Shown here piece after piece: positions 11,870 through 19,945 of a stretch of DNA of 56,976 bases. The notes below the pieces were generated by a model that saw only the letters and a list, made by a program, of their open reading frames with translations, was not told where the DNA came from and made no database searches. Source of the DNA: Myxococcales bacterium (GTDB lineage Bacteria; Myxococcota_A; Polyangia; Polyangiales; Polyangiaceae). Each line of letters begins with the position of its first letter. Position 1 is the first letter of the stretch. Location of the stretch: NCBI GenBank assembly GCA_947473045.1, contig CANJCO010000031.1, positions 1 to 56,976 of the forward strand, written 5' to 3'. The position numbers and the translations under genes are program-made.

Positions 11870-13075
11870 ATGGCGTTGGCCGCGCGCGCTGGCTTTTCTC
11901 ACGTCTCTGACGACGATTACGCACGCACGGTCATCGCGCAGCAGTTCGCGCACGCGCCGCGGGTCGACCCGAGCGGCACGAGCTGGTTGCCGCTGCCGTT
12001 CTGGCTGTCGGGCGCGTCGATGATGGTGCTGGGGCGCTCGCTCGCCGCGGCGCGTGCCTGCGCCTGGGCGTTCGGCGCGCTCGGATCGCTCGCTCCGTTC
12101 TTTGCGCTTCGATACTTGCAGATTGCAACTAAATGGGCTGCGATCGCGGCGTTGCTCAGCGCCGCGGCACCGTGGAGCGTTTGGCTCGCGTCGGCGACCG
12201 TCCCGGATGGATGGGCGGCGGCTCTCACCGCGGCTGCGCTGCTTCTCACGGCGTCCCAGGCGCCGCGCGGGCTCGCGGCCGCGGCCGCGCTCGTGCTCGC
12301 GGGGGCGCTGTGCCGCTACGAAGTTTGGCCTGCGTGCGCGTTCGTGTCGCTCGTGGCGCTTGTCCGCGCGTGGTCGTCGCGCACCGATCGGGCCGTGCTC
12401 GTCGCGAGCGCGCTCATCGCCGCGATCGGGCCCGCGTCGTGGATGCTCTGGAACGCGCACGCGCACGGTGATCCGCTGCACTTCTTCGCGCGGGTGTCGG
12501 CCTTTCGGCAAGCCAGCGGGGATGCGCCGCGCACCGTCTGGGCGCGGGTCGCGCAGTATCCGGCAGCGCTCGTGACGGCCTTTCCCGAGGCCGCGCTGGG
12601 TGCTGCTCTCTGCCTTGTCTCGTCGGACCGCAAGCGCTTTGCGCTTCCGCTCGCAGGGGCGCTTGCGATTGTCTGCTTTCTCGTGTGGGGCGACCTGAAA
12701 GATGGCGCGCCGACGCATCATCCGGAGCGCGCGCTCGGCGCTGTCGCGATCGTGGCGACGTGCGCGGGAGTCGTCGTTGCTTCGCGCGCGGGCGGCGCGC
12801 TGAACTGGCTGGTTACGGGGCCGGCGGTGGCGGCGTTGGTCGCGCTTGCCGTCTTGCGTTTTCGCGATCCGCCCGGCGCCGGCGCCGCAGAGGATCGCGC
12901 TCCGCAAATCGCAGTCGGGCTTTCGTTGCGTTCTGCGGGCTCGCTCACGGTGACGCCCTGCAACTACGAGCATTTCGCGCTCATCGCTGCGCTCTCGGCG
13001 CCGGAGCGCGTGTCGATCGCGCCGCCCTCGCGCCCGCGCGTCGGGGCTACGTGCCCGAGGGTCGAGCGGCGGTAG
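11870..13075 (+). CDS. membrane glycosyltransferase-like protein (GT39/ArnT-type fold)
   Basis: This polytopic membrane protein resembles the GT-C superfamily. The block SHVSDDDYARTVIAQQF, with its acidic cluster in the first external loop, and TSWLPLPFWLSG are typical of enzymes that move sugars from polyprenyl-phosphate donors. About eight hydrophobic helices follow. The first ATG is at 11870, but beginning there removes the helix encoded just before it (LAATLIVAGKLALMALAA). The frame is open further upstream with no ATG, GTG or TTG near the secG stop; a CTG at 11801 overlaps that stop (CTGA). The true start is uncertain. The 3' end overlaps the convergent ABC gene by 29 bases. Acceptor and donor are unknown. 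Confidence 0.7.
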   Translation: MALAARAGFSHVSDDDYARTVIAQQFAHAPRVDPSGTSWLPLPFWLSGASMMVLGRSLAAARACAWAFGALGSLAPFFALRYLQIATKWAAIAALLSAAAPWSVWLASATVPDGWAAALTAAALLLTASQAPRGLAAAAALVLAGALCRYEVWPACAFVSLVALVRAWSSRTDRAVLVASALIAAIGPASWMLWNAHAHGDPLHFFARVSAFRQASGDAPRTVWARVAQYPAALVTAFPEAALGAALCLVSSDRKRFALPLAGALAIVCFLVWGDLKDGAPTHHPERALGAVAIVATCAGVVVASRAGGALNWLVTGPAVAALVALAVLRFRDPPGAGAAEDRAPQIAVGLSLRSAGSLTVTPCNYEHFALIAALSAPERVSIAPPSRPRVGATCPRVERR

Positions 13076-14609
13076 GCGTGCTGGAGGCCACGCGGCCGCC
13101 GGCGAGCTCGACGTGGTGGCCTTCGATCGCGAGCACTTCGGGATCGTGAGCGGCGATCGCGACGGCCGCGTGCGCCGACAGCTCCGCCACCACGCGCGCG
13201 ATCATCGACAGGCCCTTGCGATCGAGGTTTTGGTCGGGCTCGTCGAAGAGGTAAACGTCGGCGTCCCGCACGAGCATTCGCGCGATCGCCACCCGCTGGC
13301 GTTCGCCTGATGAAAGGTCGTCGGCGCACACCCCGAGGGGATCGTGCGCGCGCTTCGCGGTGAGCGTGCCCAGCAGCTCGACGCGCGAAATCGCCTTGAA
13401 AATGGCTGCATCCGTGGCCTCGGGTTCGAGGAAGCGAATGGCCTCGCGGACGGTTGCCTGCGGGGCAAGACAGGGGCGCTGGGGCAAGTAGGCCACGCGT
13501 GCGCGCCACAGCGAGAGGTCGATCGTGGCCATGTTGACGTCGCCGAGCAGGATGTCGCCGGCGTGAGGCACCACGAGACCAACCGCGAGCCGGAGCAACG
13601 TACTCTTGCCCGAGCCGTTCGCGCCCGAAAGCACGAGCACCCGCGCGCAGTCCCACGTGAGCGTTACTTCGTCGACGGCGGGCGGGGCGTCTCCATACTG
13701 GCAGCTGACGTTGCGATAGGTGACGCGTGAAAGCTTCGGCGGGGGCGCGTCGCCAGCGGAGCGCAGTGGGGCGGGCAGAAGCAGCGTCGCGATGCGCGCG
13801 CGCGCCGCTCTGCTCCGGATGAGCGCTATCGATCCGAGCGCGAGCCCGGCAAACGGCGGCAGCGCGCTGGCGACGAGCAGCGAAGATGCGAGCGAAGCGT
13901 GCGGATCGACGAGCACGCTCGCCCCGAGCGCCGCGATCGTGGCGAGGCCCATCGGAGCGCGACCCGCGAGCGCCAGTGCGAGGCTCGACCTGCGCGACGT
14001 GCGACGGCGCTCCTGCACTGCGGAAGCGATGCGCCCCAGGGCGGCGCCTTCGCGTGCGGCGCTCACGAGCTCGACCCGCCCGAGCAGCGCCTCGCTCGCA
14101 CTGCGCAGCAGGGTTTCGTACCCGCGCCACGCGGCTTCGGCCTCGCGAGCGGCGAGACGCTGCGCGAAAATGGCGATCGTCAGCGCGACGGCGAGGCTGA
14201 GAACAAGGCTGAAGCTGAGCGCGTGGCTCCAGCTTGCGGCGGCCCACGCGATGGCCAGCGCCGCTGCGGCGCCCTCGCCGATGAGGCTCGGAAACACGTC
14301 GGCGCGCGCGCGCGCTTCGGCGTCAACGCCCTCCATGAGTGCGCGCTGCAGCTCGACCTCGTCGCCGCGGAGCACGTCTCCGCGAAGCACGCCCGCGGTC
14401 GCTTCCGAAAACAGGCTCCCTTCGAGCTGCGCGCGGTGGGCGTGCGTCACCGCCCCGCGCGCGACGAAGCTGAGCGCGAGCACTGCGGAAATGCAGACGC
14501 CGCCTACGATGCTCCGGTCGCCCGACCAGACCGTGGCCAACGCGAACAGCCCTGCGCGTTCGACGACGAGCAGGGCTGAACTGGCGCCGAACAGGGCGCG
14601 TTGGCTCAT
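13047..14609 (-). CDS. ABC transporter, fused permease and ATPase (lasso exporter D)
   Basis: The 520-residue protein fuses an N-terminal membrane domain with about five or six helices (to about 280) to an ATP-binding domain. The ATPase has Walker A in SGANGSGKST, a Q-loop in YLPQRP, the signature LSSGERQRVA, Walker B in VYLFDEPDQNLD and an H-loop His in IAAHD. Half-size exporters of this kind pump ribosomal peptides from the cell and give immunity, which fits its place at the end of the lasso operon. There is no N-terminal peptidase domain, as expected when B2 removes the leader. Its 3' end overlaps the convergent glycosyltransferase gene by 29 bases. Confidence 0.92.
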   Translation of the reverse strand: MSQRALFGASSALLVVERAGLFALATVWSGDRSIVGGVCISAVLALSFVARGAVTHAHRAQLEGSLFSEATAGVLRGDVLRGDEVELQRALMEGVDAEARARADVFPSLIGEGAAAALAIAWAAASWSHALSFSLVLSLAVALTIAIFAQRLAAREAEAAWRGYETLLRSASEALLGRVELVSAAREGAALGRIASAVQERRRTSRRSSLALALAGRAPMGLATIAALGASVLVDPHASLASSLLVASALPPFAGLALGSIALIRSRAARARIATLLLPAPLRSAGDAPPPKLSRVTYRNVSCQYGDAPPAVDEVTLTWDCARVLVLSGANGSGKSTLLRLAVGLVVPHAGDILLGDVNMATIDLSLWRARVAYLPQRPCLAPQATVREAIRFLEPEATDAAIFKAISRVELLGTLTAKRAHDPLGVCADDLSSGERQRVAIARMLVRDADVYLFDEPDQNLDRKGLSMIARVVAELSAHAAVAIAAHDPEVLAIEGHHVELAGGRVASSTPTAARPSGT

Positions 14610-14628: not shown

Positions 14629-15552
14629 TCAGCCGCCGTCCTTGGTGAAATATGCGCAGGTCTCGGGGTCGACGAGCGTCAGGGTCTGCACGCACTTCGA
14701 AGTGACGAAGCTGCACAGGCTGCTCGCGCATTCCCAGTCGAGCGTGCAGGGGGAGCCGATGGGTAGTTGCGCGAGGCACTTGAACGTCTTGCCCGCGTCC
14801 CCATATTTGTAGATGTCGCAGCGCTCGTTGCCGATGTAGCCGCGGTAGGCGCACATATCGTTGTTGTCGGGCCCGCAAGCTGCGCCCGGGGCCGCCAGCG
14901 CGATGCACGAACCCTCCCCGCCATCGGTGTTGAGCTGGCAGTACGCGCCCTTGACGCACTCGACCGAATCGATGCAACCGGTCTGCCCGATCCCAACCGT
15001 GCCGCTCAACGCGGCGTAGCAGTTTTGCATGACGTTGCGATACTCGGCGCTGCCGTAGACGGGGCAGGTGAGCGCTCCAAGCCCCGCGACGCACGAGGCG
15101 GCTGCGACGGCATCGAACTTCACTTTGCCGCGCGTCATCGTGGGAAGCTTGCCCCCGTCGGGACCGATCAGAGCCGCGAAGTTGCTGTCGAATCCGCCGC
15201 CGGTCAGCTGAATGTCCTCGCAGAGGGCTTCCTTCCAGGCAGACGCATCCGGGCCGTTGCAGCAGTGCGCTGCGTGCATGCAAAGCGCCGCCGATTGCGC
15301 GGCCGGGAAGTCGAAGAGGCTGCCCGCGTCGACGGCTGCCTCAGGTGCGCTGTCGCCGACCGAGGTGTCGGTCGCGCCGTCGACAGGCTGAGCCGCGTCG
15401 ACGCGGGTGACGTCGGCGCGTCCGTCGGTCGTGGCATCGGGCAGGGGAACCGCAGTGTCATCGCCGCAGCCGATCAGGAGCGCGCCGACCATCAGACTGC
15501 CTGCTGCGATTCCGCCCACGACTGCACTCACCCGCGACAAACTCTTGCTCAT
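14629..15552 (-). CDS. Cys-rich lipoprotein inside the lasso operon
   Basis: The 307-residue product has a lipoprotein signal peptide ending in ALLIGCGDD (lipid-carrying Cys29), then an Asp/Thr/Ala-rich linker, then a domain with many cysteines (ALCMHAAHCCNGPD, GQTGCIDSVECVKGAYC, SPCTLDWECASSLC). The spacing of the C-terminal Cys pairs recalls the Dickkopf-like or EGF-like repeats common in large myxobacterial genomes. It is anchored to a membrane, probably the outer one. An AGGAG ribosome-binding site lies before the ATG, and TAAAAT about 30 bases upstream could be a separate -10 element. No lasso-related family is recognised; it may be an immunity or surface-binding factor, or unrelated. 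Confidence 0.8.
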   Translation of the reverse strand: MSKSLSRVSAVVGGIAAGSLMVGALLIGCGDDTAVPLPDATTDGRADVTRVDAAQPVDGATDTSVGDSAPEAAVDAGSLFDFPAAQSAALCMHAAHCCNGPDASAWKEALCEDIQLTGGGFDSNFAALIGPDGGKLPTMTRGKVKFDAVAAASCVAGLGALTCPVYGSAEYRNVMQNCYAALSGTVGIGQTGCIDSVECVKGAYCQLNTDGGEGSCIALAAPGAACGPDNNDMCAYRGYIGNERCDIYKYGDAGKTFKCLAQLPIGSPCTLDWECASSLCSFVTSKCVQTLTLVDPETCAYFTKDGG

Positions 15553-15597: not shown

Positions 15598-15948
15598 TCA
15601 GAGGCCAAGGTCGAGGCCGAGACGCGCAAGTTCGGCGTAGTCGGCGGGGTCGGTGAGCACCGCGCCCTTTCGCTCGACCCAGGCGTGCGCGATTTCTCCG
15701 CTGCTCGCTGAAGGATTGGCTCCGATGACGACCTCGGCGCCGCGCGCGCGCGCAGCCACGGTGATCGCGCGCGTGAGGCACGTGCCGCCGCCGATGTGCC
15801 GGAGTCGCGCGGCGTCGCGCCTGGCTTCGGCGTCGCCGAGCGCGGGAAGCATGCGCCCCAAGGCGCGAACCAGGCTCGCCGCGCGAGGCGGGGGGAGCCG
15901 ACGCAGCGCCACGCGGGCGACCATGTGGAGCGCGAGCGAGGCCAGCAA
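15598..15948 (-). CDS. lasso-peptide leader peptidase B2 (transglutaminase-like)
   Basis: The 116-residue protein matches the lasso B2 family, a cysteine protease with a transglutaminase-like fold that cuts the leader from the precursor. The triad is visible: Cys57 in GGGTCLTRA, His88 in EIAHAWVE and Asp100 in LTDPADY. A short N-terminal helical region is typical. The frame's start is a TTG at 15948, seven codons from the previous gene's stop region; an ATG at 15924 is the next choice. It lies six bases downstream of the B1 gene. Confidence 0.9.
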   Translation of the reverse strand: MLASLALHMVARVALRRLPPPRAASLVRALGRMLPALGDAEARRDAARLRHIGGGTCLTRAITVAARARGAEVVIGANPSASSGEIAHAWVERKGAVLTDPADYAELARLGLDLGL

Positions 15949-15954
15949 AGCGAC

Positions 15955-16248
15955 TTATGCCGGAAGCTGCACGAGACCGCGTGCGAGCCACTCGTCGCAC
16001 AGGGCCGACAGGTCCGCGATCAGGGTGGCGAGCGCCACGTCATAGTGCGGCTCTATATCGATCGCGACTTCGGCAGCCGTTTTACCTGCGCTCATGCCAT
16101 TCCACAGCCGCGTGCCGACGTCGTCGAGCGCGTAGTACTGCCCCTGCTCGAGGTCGACGATCACCATCTCGCCCTCGAACTCGCGTGCGTGAACGTGAGC
16201 CGGGATGAAGACGCGGGTATCGGGATTCACGCGCTGCGTATCGTTCAT
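15955..16248 (-). CDS. PqqD-like RRE protein (lasso B1)
   Basis: The 97-residue protein has the PqqD/RiPP-recognition-element fold: three beta strands with EMVIVDLEQGQYYALDDVGTRLWNGM, then three helices ending in LSALCDEWLARGLVQL. In lasso pathways this unit grips the precursor leader and hands it to the B2 peptidase and the cyclase. The ATG at 16248 overlaps the kinase stop (ATGA) and has a GAGG ribosome-binding site, so it is preferred over the ATG four codons upstream. Confidence 0.92.
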   Translation of the reverse strand: MNDTQRVNPDTRVFIPAHVHAREFEGEMVIVDLEQGQYYALDDVGTRLWNGMSAGKTAAEVAIDIEPHYDVALATLIADLSALCDEWLARGLVQLPA

Positions 16249-17009
16249 GAGGCCTCGCATGCGAAGACTAGCATTTCAGCCACGGACGCAAGCGACGCGT
16301 CGAGCGGGCGCTGCAGCTGCCAAACGGCGACGCGCTCGCAGACTTCGGAAATGCGGTCGAGATCGTTGCGCCGGGCGTCGGGCCACAGATGAAACGTCGA
16401 TCGCACGAGCGCAGTGAGGGCCTCGCGCCCGCGCAGCCTTTGTACGGTGACGCTGCTGGCCTCGACGCGAGGCGACAGCAGGACCACGGCCGCGAGCCGT
16501 GAGCTTTCTCCGGCGCATCCCGTGCCCAGGGTGGCGGGCGCGCGGGTCTCGTCAAAGCCCATGAGGGCGAGCGCTCCGTCCCGCAGCGAGTGCACCGCCT
16601 CTGTCGGTCGTACGACAAAGTGGTCGCCTTCCTGATCGATCGCGGCCACGTCGTCGGCGAGCAGCGAGAAGCCTTCGCGCGCGCAGAGCGTGGCCGTCGC
16701 CGTCGACTTGCCGCTGCCGCTCGCTCCGAGCAGCACCACCGCCTTGCCGGCGCGCTCCGCGGCGCCTGCATGAAGCGCCAACTTGCCGGCGATTTGTTGC
16801 TGAAATGCCCGAGCAACGCCCCGTTCGAGCTTGGCCGCGATGCGGGGATCGGCCCGCGGATCCGGCTCGAAATGGCCGGCGGAGGCGCTTCCGCGAAACG
16901 TCCCGATGCCCTCCCACTCGGCGACGAACTCTCCCGAGCTCGTGGTGCCCACGCGGTGCGCAGGAGCCGCTGCACCGCCCGATTCGACGTGCCACCGCAC
17001 GTCGCTCAC
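16245..17009 (-). CDS. HprK-like serine kinase of the lasso cluster
   Basis: This 254-residue protein resembles the C-terminal catalytic domain of HPr kinase. It has the conserved His80 in ALHAGAA, a Walker A loop GASGSGKST (95-103) and Asp119-Asp120 in LLADDVAAI. The GTG at 17009 overlaps the cyclase stop (GTGA) and is preceded by a strong AGGAGG. Related kinases in lasso clusters are known to phosphorylate the C-terminal Ser of the peptide; here the predicted core ends in Met, so the target may be an internal Ser or Thr, or another molecule. The location in a tight operon with B1 and B2 supports a tailoring or regulatory role. Confidence 0.88.
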   Translation of the reverse strand: MSDVRWHVESGGAAAPAHRVGTTSSGEFVAEWEGIGTFRGSASAGHFEPDPRADPRIAAKLERGVARAFQQQIAGKLALHAGAAERAGKAVVLLGASGSGKSTATATLCAREGFSLLADDVAAIDQEGDHFVVRPTEAVHSLRDGALALMGFDETRAPATLGTGCAGESSRLAAVVLLSPRVEASSVTVQRLRGREALTALVRSTFHLWPDARRNDLDRISEVCERVAVWQLQRPLDASLASVAEMLVFACEAS

Positions 17010-18718
17010 GAGGCCTCCTGCGTGTGGCGCAGAAAAGCCTCGGCGGCCAGAACTTCGAGGAGCGCGCCAGCGGACCGGGCGCGGTCTGCCCCTGTCACTG
17101 CGCTGCTGAATGCGACGGGATCGACCAGGTCGCGCGCGGCGAGCTCGCGCACCGAACGCAGCGGCACTGCGCTTGGATGATCGATGAATGCGCTCACGAT
17201 ATTCGCGCGCGGATCGGCCTTGTCGACGCGCATGCGCACGTGCTCGGGCATCGCATCGCGCATCGCCAATCGCAGAAGGCCGCGGTAGATGCCGCCTGTG
17301 TGGAGCAGGTCGGGGCGAATCGCCGTGACGAACCGCACCAGATCGACGTCGGCGAACGGGCATCGGCACGCCAGGTGCGTCACGCTTTCAACGCGCGCGC
17401 TTGCGTCTGCCGAATCGACAAATGCCTGAGAGTCCGCGTAGCTGCGGAAGTACGCGCCCGGTCCGTCAGGGTCGGCCGCGCGCACTTCGGCATTGGCGCG
17501 CAACGCCCGCTCGCACAGCGCGAGCATTCGCGGCCGCGCCCAGGGCAGTTGGGCCCGCAGCGATTCGAATTGGCTCGCGCGACGCAAAAGTGGCGAAAAT
17601 AGACGTCGGGCGAACGGCCTCGCGACCAGCTGCAGCACCAGCGACGCGCGCGACTGCGGAAGCGGAAAGCGCGTGAACGCCGCGGCGCGGATGGCTTTGA
17701 GTGGCTGCTGCGTCGCGAGCGCGCTGCCAAGCAGCCCGAGATCTCCGCCGAAGACATCGTCGCCGAAGTGGCCGGAAAGCGCGACGTCGGCCCCGCGCGC
17801 GCGCGCATGCTCGATGGCTGCGTGTTCGTACAGCTCGAGCGTCGCGGGCGCGTCGTCCATGACCAGCGACAGGGGCGCAGCGTTGCGCGTCGCATGGGCG
17901 GCGATGTGGAGCGGCACGAGACCGTAGGCGTCGCACAGGGCGTCGACGTACGCGGAGTCGCAGCCCGGTCCGCCGAGATCGCACGTCAGGACGTCGAGCT
18001 CTTTTGGGGTCGCCCCGCGCGACTGCGCGACGAGCGAAGCCACGACGCTCGACGAGTCGATGCCGCCGACGAGCACGGCGACCCGCTTCGCCCCTTCGGT
18101 GGCACGGCCGACGGCCACGTCGATCCGCCTCCGCAGCTCGATCGCCAGCTCCCTGACGTCGCCTTCCAGCCAGACTTCCGAGATCGCCTCGGGCAAGCTG
18201 CGCCTTCGCTCGACTCCGTGGGGCCCGACGTAGAGCGACTCGCCTGCATCGAGCCTCGCGACGCCCTCGTAGTGTGTGCCTGTGCGATCTTCGGCGAAGA
18301 GGCCGGCAGCAAAGGAAGCGAGCCTCGGTTCGCTCACCCGCGGGCGCGACGCGAGCTGCCTCACGACCGCGGCGAGCTCGGTGCTCGCGAACAGTACCTG
18401 CCCGTCGCTAAGCCATGCATAATACAGTGATTCGCCGCCGAGAGGGCCGCGGGCCAGCAGGAGCGATACGCCGTCGCTGGCCATGAGCGCCCCGGAGGTG
18501 TCGAGCGTTGCGCAATCGAGTGACGCAGTCAGGCTGGCGACAAGCGCAGGCCGCACGTGGCCGCGCGTAGCCACGACGCGCGCTCCGCCTGAAATTCGCT
18601 CATGCGCCGACGCATGCACCACGCTGACGGAGGCACGGGCTCCACGCTGGATGGGCGCACCGCCCGACGCCGGCCGCTGCGCCAGTGCGTCGGTCGCGCA
18701 CCACCGACCGACCAACAC
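17006..18718 (-). CDS. lasso-peptide cyclase C (asparagine-synthetase-like)
   Basis: The 570-residue protein looks like the asparagine-synthetase family used by lasso pathways to activate the ring Asp/Glu side chain as an AMP ester and close the macrolactam. The synthetase domain starts near 190; its pyrophosphate loop reads VGGIDSS (217-223), where the usual first Ser is Val. ALSGHFGDDVFGG is the second family block. The N-terminal glutaminase domain is degenerate: no Cys at position 2, and the protein begins MLVGRWC from a GTG. That fits a lasso cyclase, which uses the peptide amine and not glutamine. The gene starts nine bases after the precursor stop. Confidence 0.92.
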   Translation of the reverse strand: MLVGRWCATDALAQRPASGGAPIQRGARASVSVVHASAHERISGGARVVATRGHVRPALVASLTASLDCATLDTSGALMASDGVSLLLARGPLGGESLYYAWLSDGQVLFASTELAAVVRQLASRPRVSEPRLASFAAGLFAEDRTGTHYEGVARLDAGESLYVGPHGVERRRSLPEAISEVWLEGDVRELAIELRRRIDVAVGRATEGAKRVAVLVGGIDSSSVVASLVAQSRGATPKELDVLTCDLGGPGCDSAYVDALCDAYGLVPLHIAAHATRNAAPLSLVMDDAPATLELYEHAAIEHARARGADVALSGHFGDDVFGGDLGLLGSALATQQPLKAIRAAAFTRFPLPQSRASLVLQLVARPFARRLFSPLLRRASQFESLRAQLPWARPRMLALCERALRANAEVRAADPDGPGAYFRSYADSQAFVDSADASARVESVTHLACRCPFADVDLVRFVTAIRPDLLHTGGIYRGLLRLAMRDAMPEHVRMRVDKADPRANIVSAFIDHPSAVPLRSVRELAARDLVDPVAFSSAVTGADRARSAGALLEVLAAEAFLRHTQEAS

Positions 18719-18727
18719 GTTGATGCC

Positions 18728-18877
18728 CTACATAACGACCGCGCGTTTTCCCATGAAGTCAGTGGTCGATGCCGCGCCGCTCGCCGTCACCTCGCTCACG
18801 CTGCCAAGTTCCACGAGCTTCGGGGCCTTGTAGGGTCGGCGCTCGGGCAGCGCGGGAGTCGTGTCTTTGGGCTTCAT
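18728..18877 (-). CDS. lasso-peptide precursor A
   Basis: A 49-codon gene starts at an ATG preceded by GGAG and ends at TAG nine bases before the cyclase. The leader (residues 1-32) contains Tyr16, Pro19, Leu21, Gly25 and Thr31, exactly the lasso recognition pattern Y-x2-P-x-L-x3-G-x5-T. Thr31 is the expected penultimate leader residue, so cleavage after Ala32 gives the core SGAASTTDFMGKRAVVM (17 residues). Asp8 of the core can close an 8-residue ring with the Ser1 amine, leaving a nine-residue tail with Phe9, Met10, Lys12 and Arg13 as possible plugs. Ser1 is unusual, as most lasso peptides begin with Gly. The core and ring are predictions. Confidence 0.88.
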   Translation of the reverse strand: MKPKDTTPALPERRPYKAPKLVELGSVSEVTASGAASTTDFMGKRAVVM

Positions 18878-18948
18878 GGGGTCTCCAGGCGTCGGGTTGC
18901 GGCATGCGAAAATGGGTCACGGCGCGGCCGCGTCGGCGCCGAGCCCTC

Positions 18949-18976
18949 ACTATAGCGCAGCGCCGGTGCAAGCCAA
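18949..18976 (-). promoter_or_regulatory. promoter of the lasso operon
   Basis: Read on the minus strand, TTGGCT (18971-18976) and TATAGT (18949-18954) are separated by 16 bases: four of six and five of six matches to the sigma-70 consensus. The -10 lies 71 bases upstream of the precursor ATG. It sits immediately after the methyltransferase stop, so the lasso genes can be transcribed on their own. Confidence 0.6.
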
Positions 18977-18979
18977 GTG

Positions 18980-19945
18980 TCAGGGCTCGCGCAGGCGGCC
19001 GAGCGCACGCCCGATCGGCGTGGCGCTGAGCGTGCTCTGCTTGAACTGCGCCCGCGTGCGGCTCCCGCTTTCGATCGTGGTCGACCAGCCGACGGCAACG
19101 CCTTCGCGCGCATGCTCGCTCGCGAAAATAGCGACGGTGACGCGATCGCCGGCAGAAACCGCGACCGGATCGGGCGACAGCAGCAGCGTGCGGGCGTAGA
19201 TCATCGGCGCCAAAAAAGGGCTGTTCGCGTAGCCGATGCCGTCTGCGAGCTCGGCCGCGAACCAACCACCGAAGCCGTGAAATACTCCGCTGCGCGAGAC
19301 TTCGAAGCTCGCGCGGCCGCTCACGCGCGGCTCGCCCATGTTCACGTAGTCGAGCGTCGCCCATTGCTCCGGTGCGGCGAGCAGGTTGTGGGGCTGCAGC
19401 GGCGCGACCGCGTCGACGTGCTGCGCGTTGACGACCACCTCAAGGCACGGCGAAAGGTCGAGCTCGCCGAACGATGAGCCCGAAGTGATCGACGCGTAGA
19501 GGGCGGGAATCTCGACTGGAGCGATGATGAGCCGGTCGCGCAGGGGAATTTGAATTCCGCCGCGTTTGAGCAGCCGGGCCCGCGCATCGGCCGTCGCGGA
19601 GAGGTGTGAGCCCGACAGCGGCGTAGAGCCCCGCAAGTCTGAGACGAGCACGTCCGCCATTTCGGGAAGCTCGACTTCGGTGGACCGCGACTCGAAGAAC
19701 GTGATGCGATCGGCGAAGCCATTTTTCGCGGCGCAGCGGCGCGCGAATTCGATGCATGGGCTGGGCTCGATCGCGTAGACGCGGCGCGCGCCGAGCTTGC
19801 ATGCGATGAGCGAAAGGATGCCCGTGCCGCAACCCACGTCGACGACGACGTCGCCGGGACGAACGCTGCGCGCGAGCGCCAGCGCATACGCATTCATACG
19901 CACCGGATCGGCGATCATCGCGCCGTAGTCGCTCACGGAGTACAT
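18980..19945 (-). CDS. PRMT-like SAM-dependent methyltransferase
   Basis: The 321-residue protein has a class I methyltransferase core with motif I VVDVGCGTGILS, motif post-I VYAIEPS and SDLRG near the active site. The N-terminal block YSVSDYGAMIADPVRMNAYALAL and the C-terminal beta-rich half (FHGFGGWFAAEL, SAGDRVTVAIFASE) match protein arginine methyltransferases. The canonical double-Glu loop is not clear: SDLRGSTPLSG stands where an E-x8-E is expected, so arginine may not be the substrate. It could modify the lasso peptide, whose core has Lys12 and Arg13, or be unrelated. It follows the Cys-rich lipoprotein gene by 32 bases. Confidence 0.82.
   Translation of the reverse strand: MYSVSDYGAMIADPVRMNAYALALARSVRPGDVVVDVGCGTGILSLIACKLGARRVYAIEPSPCIEFARRCAAKNGFADRITFFESRSTEVELPEMADVLVSDLRGSTPLSGSHLSATADARARLLKRGGIQIPLRDRLIIAPVEIPALYASITSGSSFGELDLSPCLEVVVNAQHVDAVAPLQPHNLLAAPEQWATLDYVNMGEPRVSGRASFEVSRSGVFHGFGGWFAAELADGIGYANSPFLAPMIYARTLLLSPDPVAVSAGDRVTVAIFASEHAREGVAVGWSTTIESGSRTRAQFKQSTLSATPIGRALGRLREP

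What the first reader, a model, noticed from the sequence alone, without database searches (positions are those of the whole stretch)
18728..18877. Lasso-peptide precursor gene with a Ser1-Asp8 core
Seen: a 49-codon ORF with GGAG ribosome-binding site, a promoter upstream and the cyclase nine bases downstream. Its leader fits Y-x2-P-x-L-x3-G-x5-T residue by residue. The predicted core is SGAASTTDFMGKRAVVM, with Asp at position 8 and Ser at position 1. Established: lasso leaders end two residues after the conserved Thr, and rings close between residue 1 and Asp/Glu at 7-9. Most characterised lasso peptides begin with Gly; a few proteobacterial ones begin with Ala or Ser. Inference: the product is a new lasso peptide of about 17 residues from a myxobacterium.
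Basis: partly seen in the sequence, partly recalled or inferred. Interest (0 to 1): 0.9.

Follow-up and report, generated by a model that had tools for sequence, protein, structure and literature searches.

The report
Lasso-peptide cluster with unusual methyltransferase
A myxobacterium carries a real gene for a new knotted ("lasso") peptide of 17 residues; the peptide gene is a routine new member of a known class, but it sits beside a kinase and an arginine-methyltransferase-like enzyme with a changed active site whose link to lasso clusters in many phyla I did not find described.

Summary
The 49-codon minus-strand ORF 18728-18877 is a lasso precursor: it passes NCBIfam NF033521 (26.3 bits, cut-off 19); a precursor model built without it finds it at E=2.7e-10 (next ORF 0.42); and cyclase, kinase, B1, B2, lipoprotein and ABC transporter genes follow on the same strand. 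In 64 myxobacterial precursors every core has Asp/Glu at 7-9 counted from Thr(-2)+2 (shuffled mean 14), 51 at position 8, and the congener's GGGASVSD aligns to SGAASTTD, so Ser1-Asp8 is well supported. Ser1-Asp8 is not new: lariocidin has it, and Ser1 recurs in related clusters. Enzymes with this loop lie on the same contig as a lasso cyclase in 54 of 68 public loci from many phyla, usually next to an HprK-type kinase. Cores beside it are Met-rich (19/19 contain Met against 8/45 without it in myxobacteria, not corrected for phylogeny). Its substrate is unproven. Verdict: a genuine new lasso peptide; modest novelty in the precursor, more in the methyltransferase.

The parts
18728..18877 (-). 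lasso precursor A (49 aa); leader residues 1-32, core 33-49 SGAASTTDFMGKRAVVM, predicted ring Ser1-Asp8
   Evidence: NF033521 above cut-off; leave-one-out HMM E=2.7e-10; family alignment A1
18883..18886 (-). GGAG ribosome-binding site, 5 nt before ATG
   Evidence: sequence
18949..18976 (-). sigma-70-like promoter TTGGCT-16-TATAGT upstream of the precursor
   Evidence: consensus match only, function not shown
17006..18718 (-). lasso cyclase C (asparagine-synthetase-like)
   Evidence: Pfam Asn_synthase 1.8e-25; lasso and macrolactam cyclase NCBIfam models 8e-20 and 3e-15, below their cut-offs
16245..17009 (-). HprK-related kinase K; probable GTG start overlaps the cyclase stop, AGGAGG upstream
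   Evidence: TIGR04352 6e-14, below cut-off; His, P-loop GASGSGKS and Asp-Asp present; start read
15955..16260 (-). B1 / RRE protein (PqqD family)
   Evidence: Pfam PqqD 1.6e-13; lasso PqqD models about 1e-8
15598..15948 (-). B2 leader peptidase (transglutaminase-like; Cys in GTCL, His in AHAW, Asp)
   Evidence: Pfam Transglut_core3 above cut-off; NF033537 32.2 bits, cut-off 33; triad residues
14629..15552 (-). Cys-rich lipoprotein, frequent member of the cluster in Polyangiaceae; role unknown
   Evidence: homologues at the same place in relatives
13047..14609 (-). ABC exporter (permease-ATPase, CydC/D-like)
   Evidence: Pfam ABC_tran 2.8e-27; same place in relatives
18980..19945 (-). PRMT-fold methyltransferase of the 'DLRG' type, upstream of the precursor
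   Evidence: PRMT6 E=4e-30; model pLDDT 92.7, Foldseek PRMT6 TM 0.81; motif changes

Best explanation
A class II lasso-peptide cluster (no Cys in the core). B1 (RRE) binds the YxxPxL leader, B2 cuts two residues after the start of Thr(-2)-Ala(-1), and cyclase C activates Asp8 and joins it to the amino group of Ser1, trapping the tail FMGKRAVVM through an 8-residue ring; the ABC transporter exports the product (expected unmodified [M+H]+ 1710.83). The parts are shown by sequence; each reaction is inferred from homology. An HprK-type kinase probably phosphorylates a core hydroxyl: there is no C-terminal Ser and position 3 is Ala, so Ser5, Thr6, Thr7 or Ser1 are the candidates. A PRMT-fold methyltransferase of the 'DLRG' type probably methylates the precursor or product; its target is unknown.
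For: Precursor model hits and leave-one-out test. Complete A-C-K-B1-B2-lipoprotein-ABC set, found again in about 20 Polyangiaceae loci. 64/64 cores with D/E at 7-9, 51 at 8, shuffled mean 14.4 and maximum 29. B2 Cys-His-Asp residues. Leader positions -17/-14/-12 and -2 are those tested experimentally in BsfA (PMC10368454). The DLRG methyltransferase is linked to lasso clusters in 18 myxobacterial loci and 54 of 68 public loci across phyla hold both.
Against: No mass, expression or structural data; threading cannot be read from sequence. The kinase and cyclase miss the curated cut-offs of the NCBIfam models and B2 is just under its own. A possible promoter separates the methyltransferase from the precursor, and a same-genus relative has the cluster without a detectable methyltransferase, so it is not essential to the class.
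Confidence: 0.92

Rival explanations
1. The leader is cut one residue later (Thr at -3), giving core GAASTTDFMGKRAVVM with a Gly1-Asp7 ring.
For: Gly is the commonest first residue in the family (46 of 64), and 7-residue rings exist (5 of 64 have the acceptor at 7).
Against: All related cores fit the residue at -2 rule; the same-genus precursor aligns TA|GGGASVSD with TA|SGAASTTD; other Ser1 cores occur; lariocidin uses Ser1-Asp8 (PMC11451635).
Confidence: 0.04
2. Chance ORF or silent cluster: the enzymes are real but this precursor is not used.
For: No expression data; short ORF.
Against: Leave-one-out E=2.7e-10; RBS, spacing and codon composition fit; a position next to the cyclase is the family's rule; no broken reading frames in the enzymes.
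Confidence: 0.03
3. The upstream PRMT-like gene is an unrelated neighbour with an ordinary arginine-methylation role and has nothing to do with the lasso peptide.
For: A promoter-like site lies between it and the precursor; Polyangiaceae genomes hold other PRMT-like genes away from lasso loci; DLRG-type genes also occur in eight contigs with no cyclase detected, some beside Arg/Met-rich small proteins.
Against: All DLRG-type genes found in the order with enough flank sit within about 8 kb of a lasso precursor, on either strand; in other phyla most contigs with it also hold a lasso cyclase and a kinase; the double-Glu loop and HW motif of PRMTs are lost.
Confidence: 0.15

Closest known systems
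Lariocidin (Paenibacillus; PMC11451635)
   Same: Ser1-Asp8 8-residue macrolactam ring, 18-residue lasso, structure solved
   Different: Different core and cluster (GNAT and clostripain-like peptidase genes); no kinase-PRMT pair in the passages read
bsf cluster of Bradymonas sediminis (PMC10368454)
   Same: Deltaproteobacterial lasso cluster with split B1/B2, kinase and ABC transporter; ring to Asp8; the kinase does not use a C-terminal Ser
   Different: BsfA has Gly1, Ile(-2) and phosphorylated Ser3, plus a nucleotidyltransferase; the window has Ser1, Thr(-2), Ala3 and a PRMT-like methyltransferase
Paeninodin / SyanK / pseudomycoidin kinase clusters (reviewed in PMC9266682)
   Same: Lasso kinase with His-Lys-Asp-Asp residues acting with split B1/B2
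   Different: Those kinases act on a C-terminal Ser; the window core ends in Val-Val-Met
StspM/LasF and PIMT-type (LihM) lasso methyltransferases (PMC9266682, PMC13352647)
   Same: SAM-dependent tailoring methyltransferase encoded in a lasso cluster
   Different: Those are O-methyltransferase or isoaspartyl-methyltransferase relatives; the window enzyme is of the PRMT fold with a changed substrate loop
PRMT6 and other protein arginine methyltransferases
   Same: Fold, SAM motif and C-terminal beta-barrel
   Different: Double-Glu loop SEWMGYGLLHES is SDLRGSTPLSGS and the HW of THW is lost

Membership tests
lasso peptide (class II) | precursor with YxxPxL leader and Thr (rarely Ile) at -2 | tested here: met
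lasso peptide (class II) | acceptor Asp/Glu at core position 7-9 | tested here: met
   Asp8; 64/64 in family
lasso peptide (class II) | B1/RRE, B2 transglutaminase-like protease and Asn-synthetase-like cyclase in the cluster | tested here: met
lasso peptide (class II) | no Cys in the core | tested here: met
   core sequence
lasso peptide (class II) | threaded lariat structure of the product | not testable with these tools
   needs MS, ion mobility or NMR
kinase-tailored lasso clusters (paeninodin kind) | HprK-type kinase with His, P-loop and Asp-Asp residues | tested here: met
   LALH-14-GASGSGKS...LLADD in 16245-17009 (sequence; motif from PMC10368454)
kinase-tailored lasso clusters (paeninodin kind) | C-terminal Ser as phosphorylation site | tested here: not met
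   core ends VVM; 0 of 19 methyltransferase-linked myxobacterial cores end in Ser/Thr
protein arginine methyltransferase (PRMT) | PRMT fold and SAM motif | tested here: met
protein arginine methyltransferase (PRMT) | catalytic double-Glu loop and THW loop | tested here: not met
   both are kept in paralogues away from these clusters

The most novel reading that the evidence does not exclude
The window belongs to a widespread, undescribed class of doubly tailored lasso peptides in which a PRMT-fold enzyme, having exchanged its guanidinium-binding double-Glu loop for a DLRG loop, methylates the core at a non-arginine site, possibly the thioether of Met (S-methylmethionine), in concert with an HprK-type kinase.
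Probability: 0.2. Interest if true: 0.8.

Novelty: new variant of a known kind. Interest (0 to 1): 0.45.

Why it matters
The precursor adds one more predicted lasso peptide, from Polyangiaceae, for which I found no characterised example in the papers read. The larger point is the tailoring pair: a PRMT-fold methyltransferase without the arginine-binding residues, found with lasso cyclase and kinase genes in cyanobacteria, Chloroflexi, Acidobacteria, Proteobacteria, Planctomycetes and myxobacteria. If it modifies the peptide, it is a lasso modification of a type not listed in the two reviews read, and a test of how a PRMT active site can be turned to another substrate. The cluster is compact (about 7 kb) and testable in a laboratory host.

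Tried and rejected
The cyclase as a single-sequence query in genome contigs found nothing. Phylogeny-aware test of the methyltransferase/Met association: only 5 independent pairs on supported branches, about 2 in favour, none against in nearly all pairings, too few for significance; the Fisher values therefore stand as uncorrected. Rejected: arginine as the general methylation site, because 5 of 19 myxobacterial cores linked to the enzyme have no Arg or Lys. Rejected: Met as a strictly required substrate, because 11 of 54 linked cores in other phyla lack Met. Rejected: C-terminal Ser phosphorylation, because there is none. Rejected: strict Ser/Thr3 phosphorylation as in BsfK; Ser/Thr3 is commonest in the window's clade (20 of 32) but the window has Ala3. 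PHROGs gave nothing for the precursor or lipoprotein. My regular-expression summary of kinase motifs in relatives was unreliable and is not used. No held paper has both 'lasso peptide' and 'PRMT'; the one with 'arginine methyltransferase' mentions lasso peptides once and I did not open it. Two weak precursor-model hits without a leader pattern or a cyclase nearby (G245, G109) and one duplicate (G203) were left out of the 64.

Full report
OBSERVATION. The ORF at 18728-18877 (-) reads MKPKDTTPALPERRPYKAPKLVELGSVSEVTASGAASTTDFMGKRAVVM. The GGAG site, the 9-base gap to the cyclase GTG at 18718, and a TTGGCT-16-TATAGT promoter-like site at 18976-18949 are all there. The precursor passes NCBIfam NF033521 'lasso RiPP family leader peptide' at 26.3 bits against a cut-off of 19. 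A model made from 17 related precursors without this one finds it at E=2.7e-10 among the 843 ORFs of 30 aa or more in the window; the next scores 0.42, and 20 rounds of shuffled ORFs give nothing better than 0.065. It is more than chance.

SURROUNDINGS. On the same strand follow the cyclase (Asn_synthase, 17006-18718), an HprK-related kinase (about 16245-17009, its probable GTG overlapping the cyclase stop), B1/PqqD (15955-16260), B2 (15598-15948, with Cys in GTCL, His in AHAW and an Asp), a Cys-rich lipoprotein (14629-15552) and a CydC/D-like ABC exporter (13047-14609).

SOURCE. The window is contig C31 of a 5.15 Mb, 99.98% complete genome. Genomes placed in its family hold contigs of the same lengths as public records named Labilithrix sp. 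(90,742 and 40,077 bases), Polyangiaceae bacterium (331,243), Myxococcales bacterium 68-20 (220,258) and a 'Sorangium cellulosum' MAG (72,853).

RELATIVES. A search of the order with the cyclase gave 23 of 184 genomes; the precursor alignment gave 54 of 184 in the order and 41 of 379 in a draw from the phylum (the weakest hits are marginal). Wide flanks show cyclase, kinase and B1 around most precursors. In 64 precursors the residue two after Thr(-2) (Ile, Leu, Val or Ala at that place in six) is Gly 46, Ala 13, Ser 3, Thr 1, Lys 1, and all 64 carry Asp/Glu at 7, 8 or 9 (5, 51, 8), against a shuffled mean of 14.4 and maximum of 29. The search model included core columns, so this is not fully independent of how they were found, but the effect is large. 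The same-genus cluster (G112) reads TA|GGGASVSD against TA|SGAASTTD here. Ser1-Asp8 is the best reading.

SER1 IS NOT NEW. Lariocidin is a solved Ser1-Asp8 lasso peptide (PMC11451635). Other Ser1 cores are in G409 (SMTMSGTD) and G077 (SGPQSHTSE) and in 12 of 54 cores of related clusters in other phyla.

KINASE. It keeps the His, the P-loop GASGSGKS and the Asp-Asp described for lasso kinases (sequence; motifs from PMC10368454 and PMC9266682). Earlier kinases act on a C-terminal Ser; this core ends in Met. BsfK of Bradymonas acts on core Ser3. In the window's clade Ser/Thr at position 3 is the commonest hydroxyl (20 of 32), but the window has Ala3; its nearest relative has Gly3, and both have Ser5. 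I infer Ser5 as the first candidate, with low confidence.

METHYLTRANSFERASE. Sequence and fold are those of protein arginine methyltransferases (PRMT6 E=4e-30; model pLDDT 92.7, TM 0.81). The loop that carries the two catalytic Glu (SEWMGYGLLHES in PRMT6) is SDLRGSTPLSGS, and the HW of the THW loop is gone. Seventeen lasso-linked enzymes share this and two more were found later; Asp103, Arg105 and Gly106 of the window enzyme are invariant in the 17 aligned. Paralogues away from these clusters keep both motifs. In the order, 19 genomes have the DLRG type: 18 have it within about 8 kb of a lasso precursor, and the 19th is on a contig that ends just after it. A scan of 84,980 genomes with a pattern built on the loop gave 68 loci in many phyla. 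Of these 54 also hold the cyclase and 58 a kinase-model hit (one, in L232, is really an ABC protein), 43 with it within 600 bases of the methyltransferase. Eight loci show no cyclase, B1, B2 or genuine kinase; in four of them, Chloroflexi-type, the upstream neighbour is a small protein with Arg runs and many Met. The enzyme family is therefore wider than lasso clusters.

WHAT IT MIGHT METHYLATE. Cores linked to the enzyme are Met-rich: 19 of 19 in myxobacteria contain Met (13.0% of residues) against 8 of 45 (2.1%) in clusters without it; in other phyla 43 of 54 linked cores contain Met (7.8%). Sixteen of 19 end in Met, counting two S74-fused precursors as cut before the S74 domain. The window core has Met10 and Met17. 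On the cyclase tree only five independent pairs exist, about two in favour, so shared ancestry could explain the pattern within myxobacteria; recurrence in other phyla speaks against that but has no matched control. Five of 19 cores lack Arg and Lys, so Arg is not a general target; 11 of 54 lack Met, so neither is Met. Carboxylate or phosphate methylation stays open: the Arg of the new loop could bind an anion (inference).

CONCLUSION. The finding is right and the precursor is a new member of a known class. The cluster is a variant in having, with the kinase, a PRMT-fold methyltransferase of changed active site that I did not find in two lasso reviews or in searches of the held papers. That literature set is incomplete, so novelty of the enzyme's association is likely but not proven.

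Noticed in passing
L032:7135-7761 (+) and L034:6724-7326 (+): In two Sorangium-like genomes the lasso precursor is fused in frame to a C-terminal Peptidase_S74-like domain (Pfam E 0.003 and 0.0016, just under cut-off; profile position 1 falls directly after the Met-ending core, at SSRE). A self-cleaving follower that frees the core's C-terminus is possible; related S74 domains sit on other proteins in the order.
   Followed up: partly
L125:2-1546 (+) and L132:7040-8622 (-): A second PRMT-like type that keeps the double-Glu loop lies directly downstream of precursors whose predicted rings are Arg-rich (AGGVRRRDG, AGGRRRRDG): a candidate for true arginine methylation of a lasso peptide.
   Followed up: no
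L231:7527-8924, L233:3444-4917, L241:1015-2528, L224:4056-5625: In Chloroflexi-type contigs the DLRG methyltransferase follows a small protein with long Arg runs and many Met, and no lasso genes were detected.
   Followed up: partly
L051 (G127:C87), L110 (G126:C299), L109 (G128:C475): Second lasso loci in genomes that also hold a fuller cluster have precursor and lipoprotein (cyclase in two) but no kinase, B1 or B2 detected; they may use the other cluster's enzymes in trans.
   Followed up: no
L141, L142, L144, L146 (G195, G203, G311, G256): Precursors with Ile at -2 instead of Thr, the variant reported for Bradymonas (PMC10368454).
   Followed up: no
window 14629-15552: A Cys-rich lipoprotein gene is a frequent member of the Polyangiaceae clusters, sometimes in two copies; it could be an immunity or delivery protein.
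   Followed up: no
L145 / L187 (G409:C128): A Ser1-Asp8 core rich in Met (SMTMSGTDATAMMQSAM) with no DLRG methyltransferase found on its contig: an exception to the Met/methyltransferase association.
   Followed up: partly
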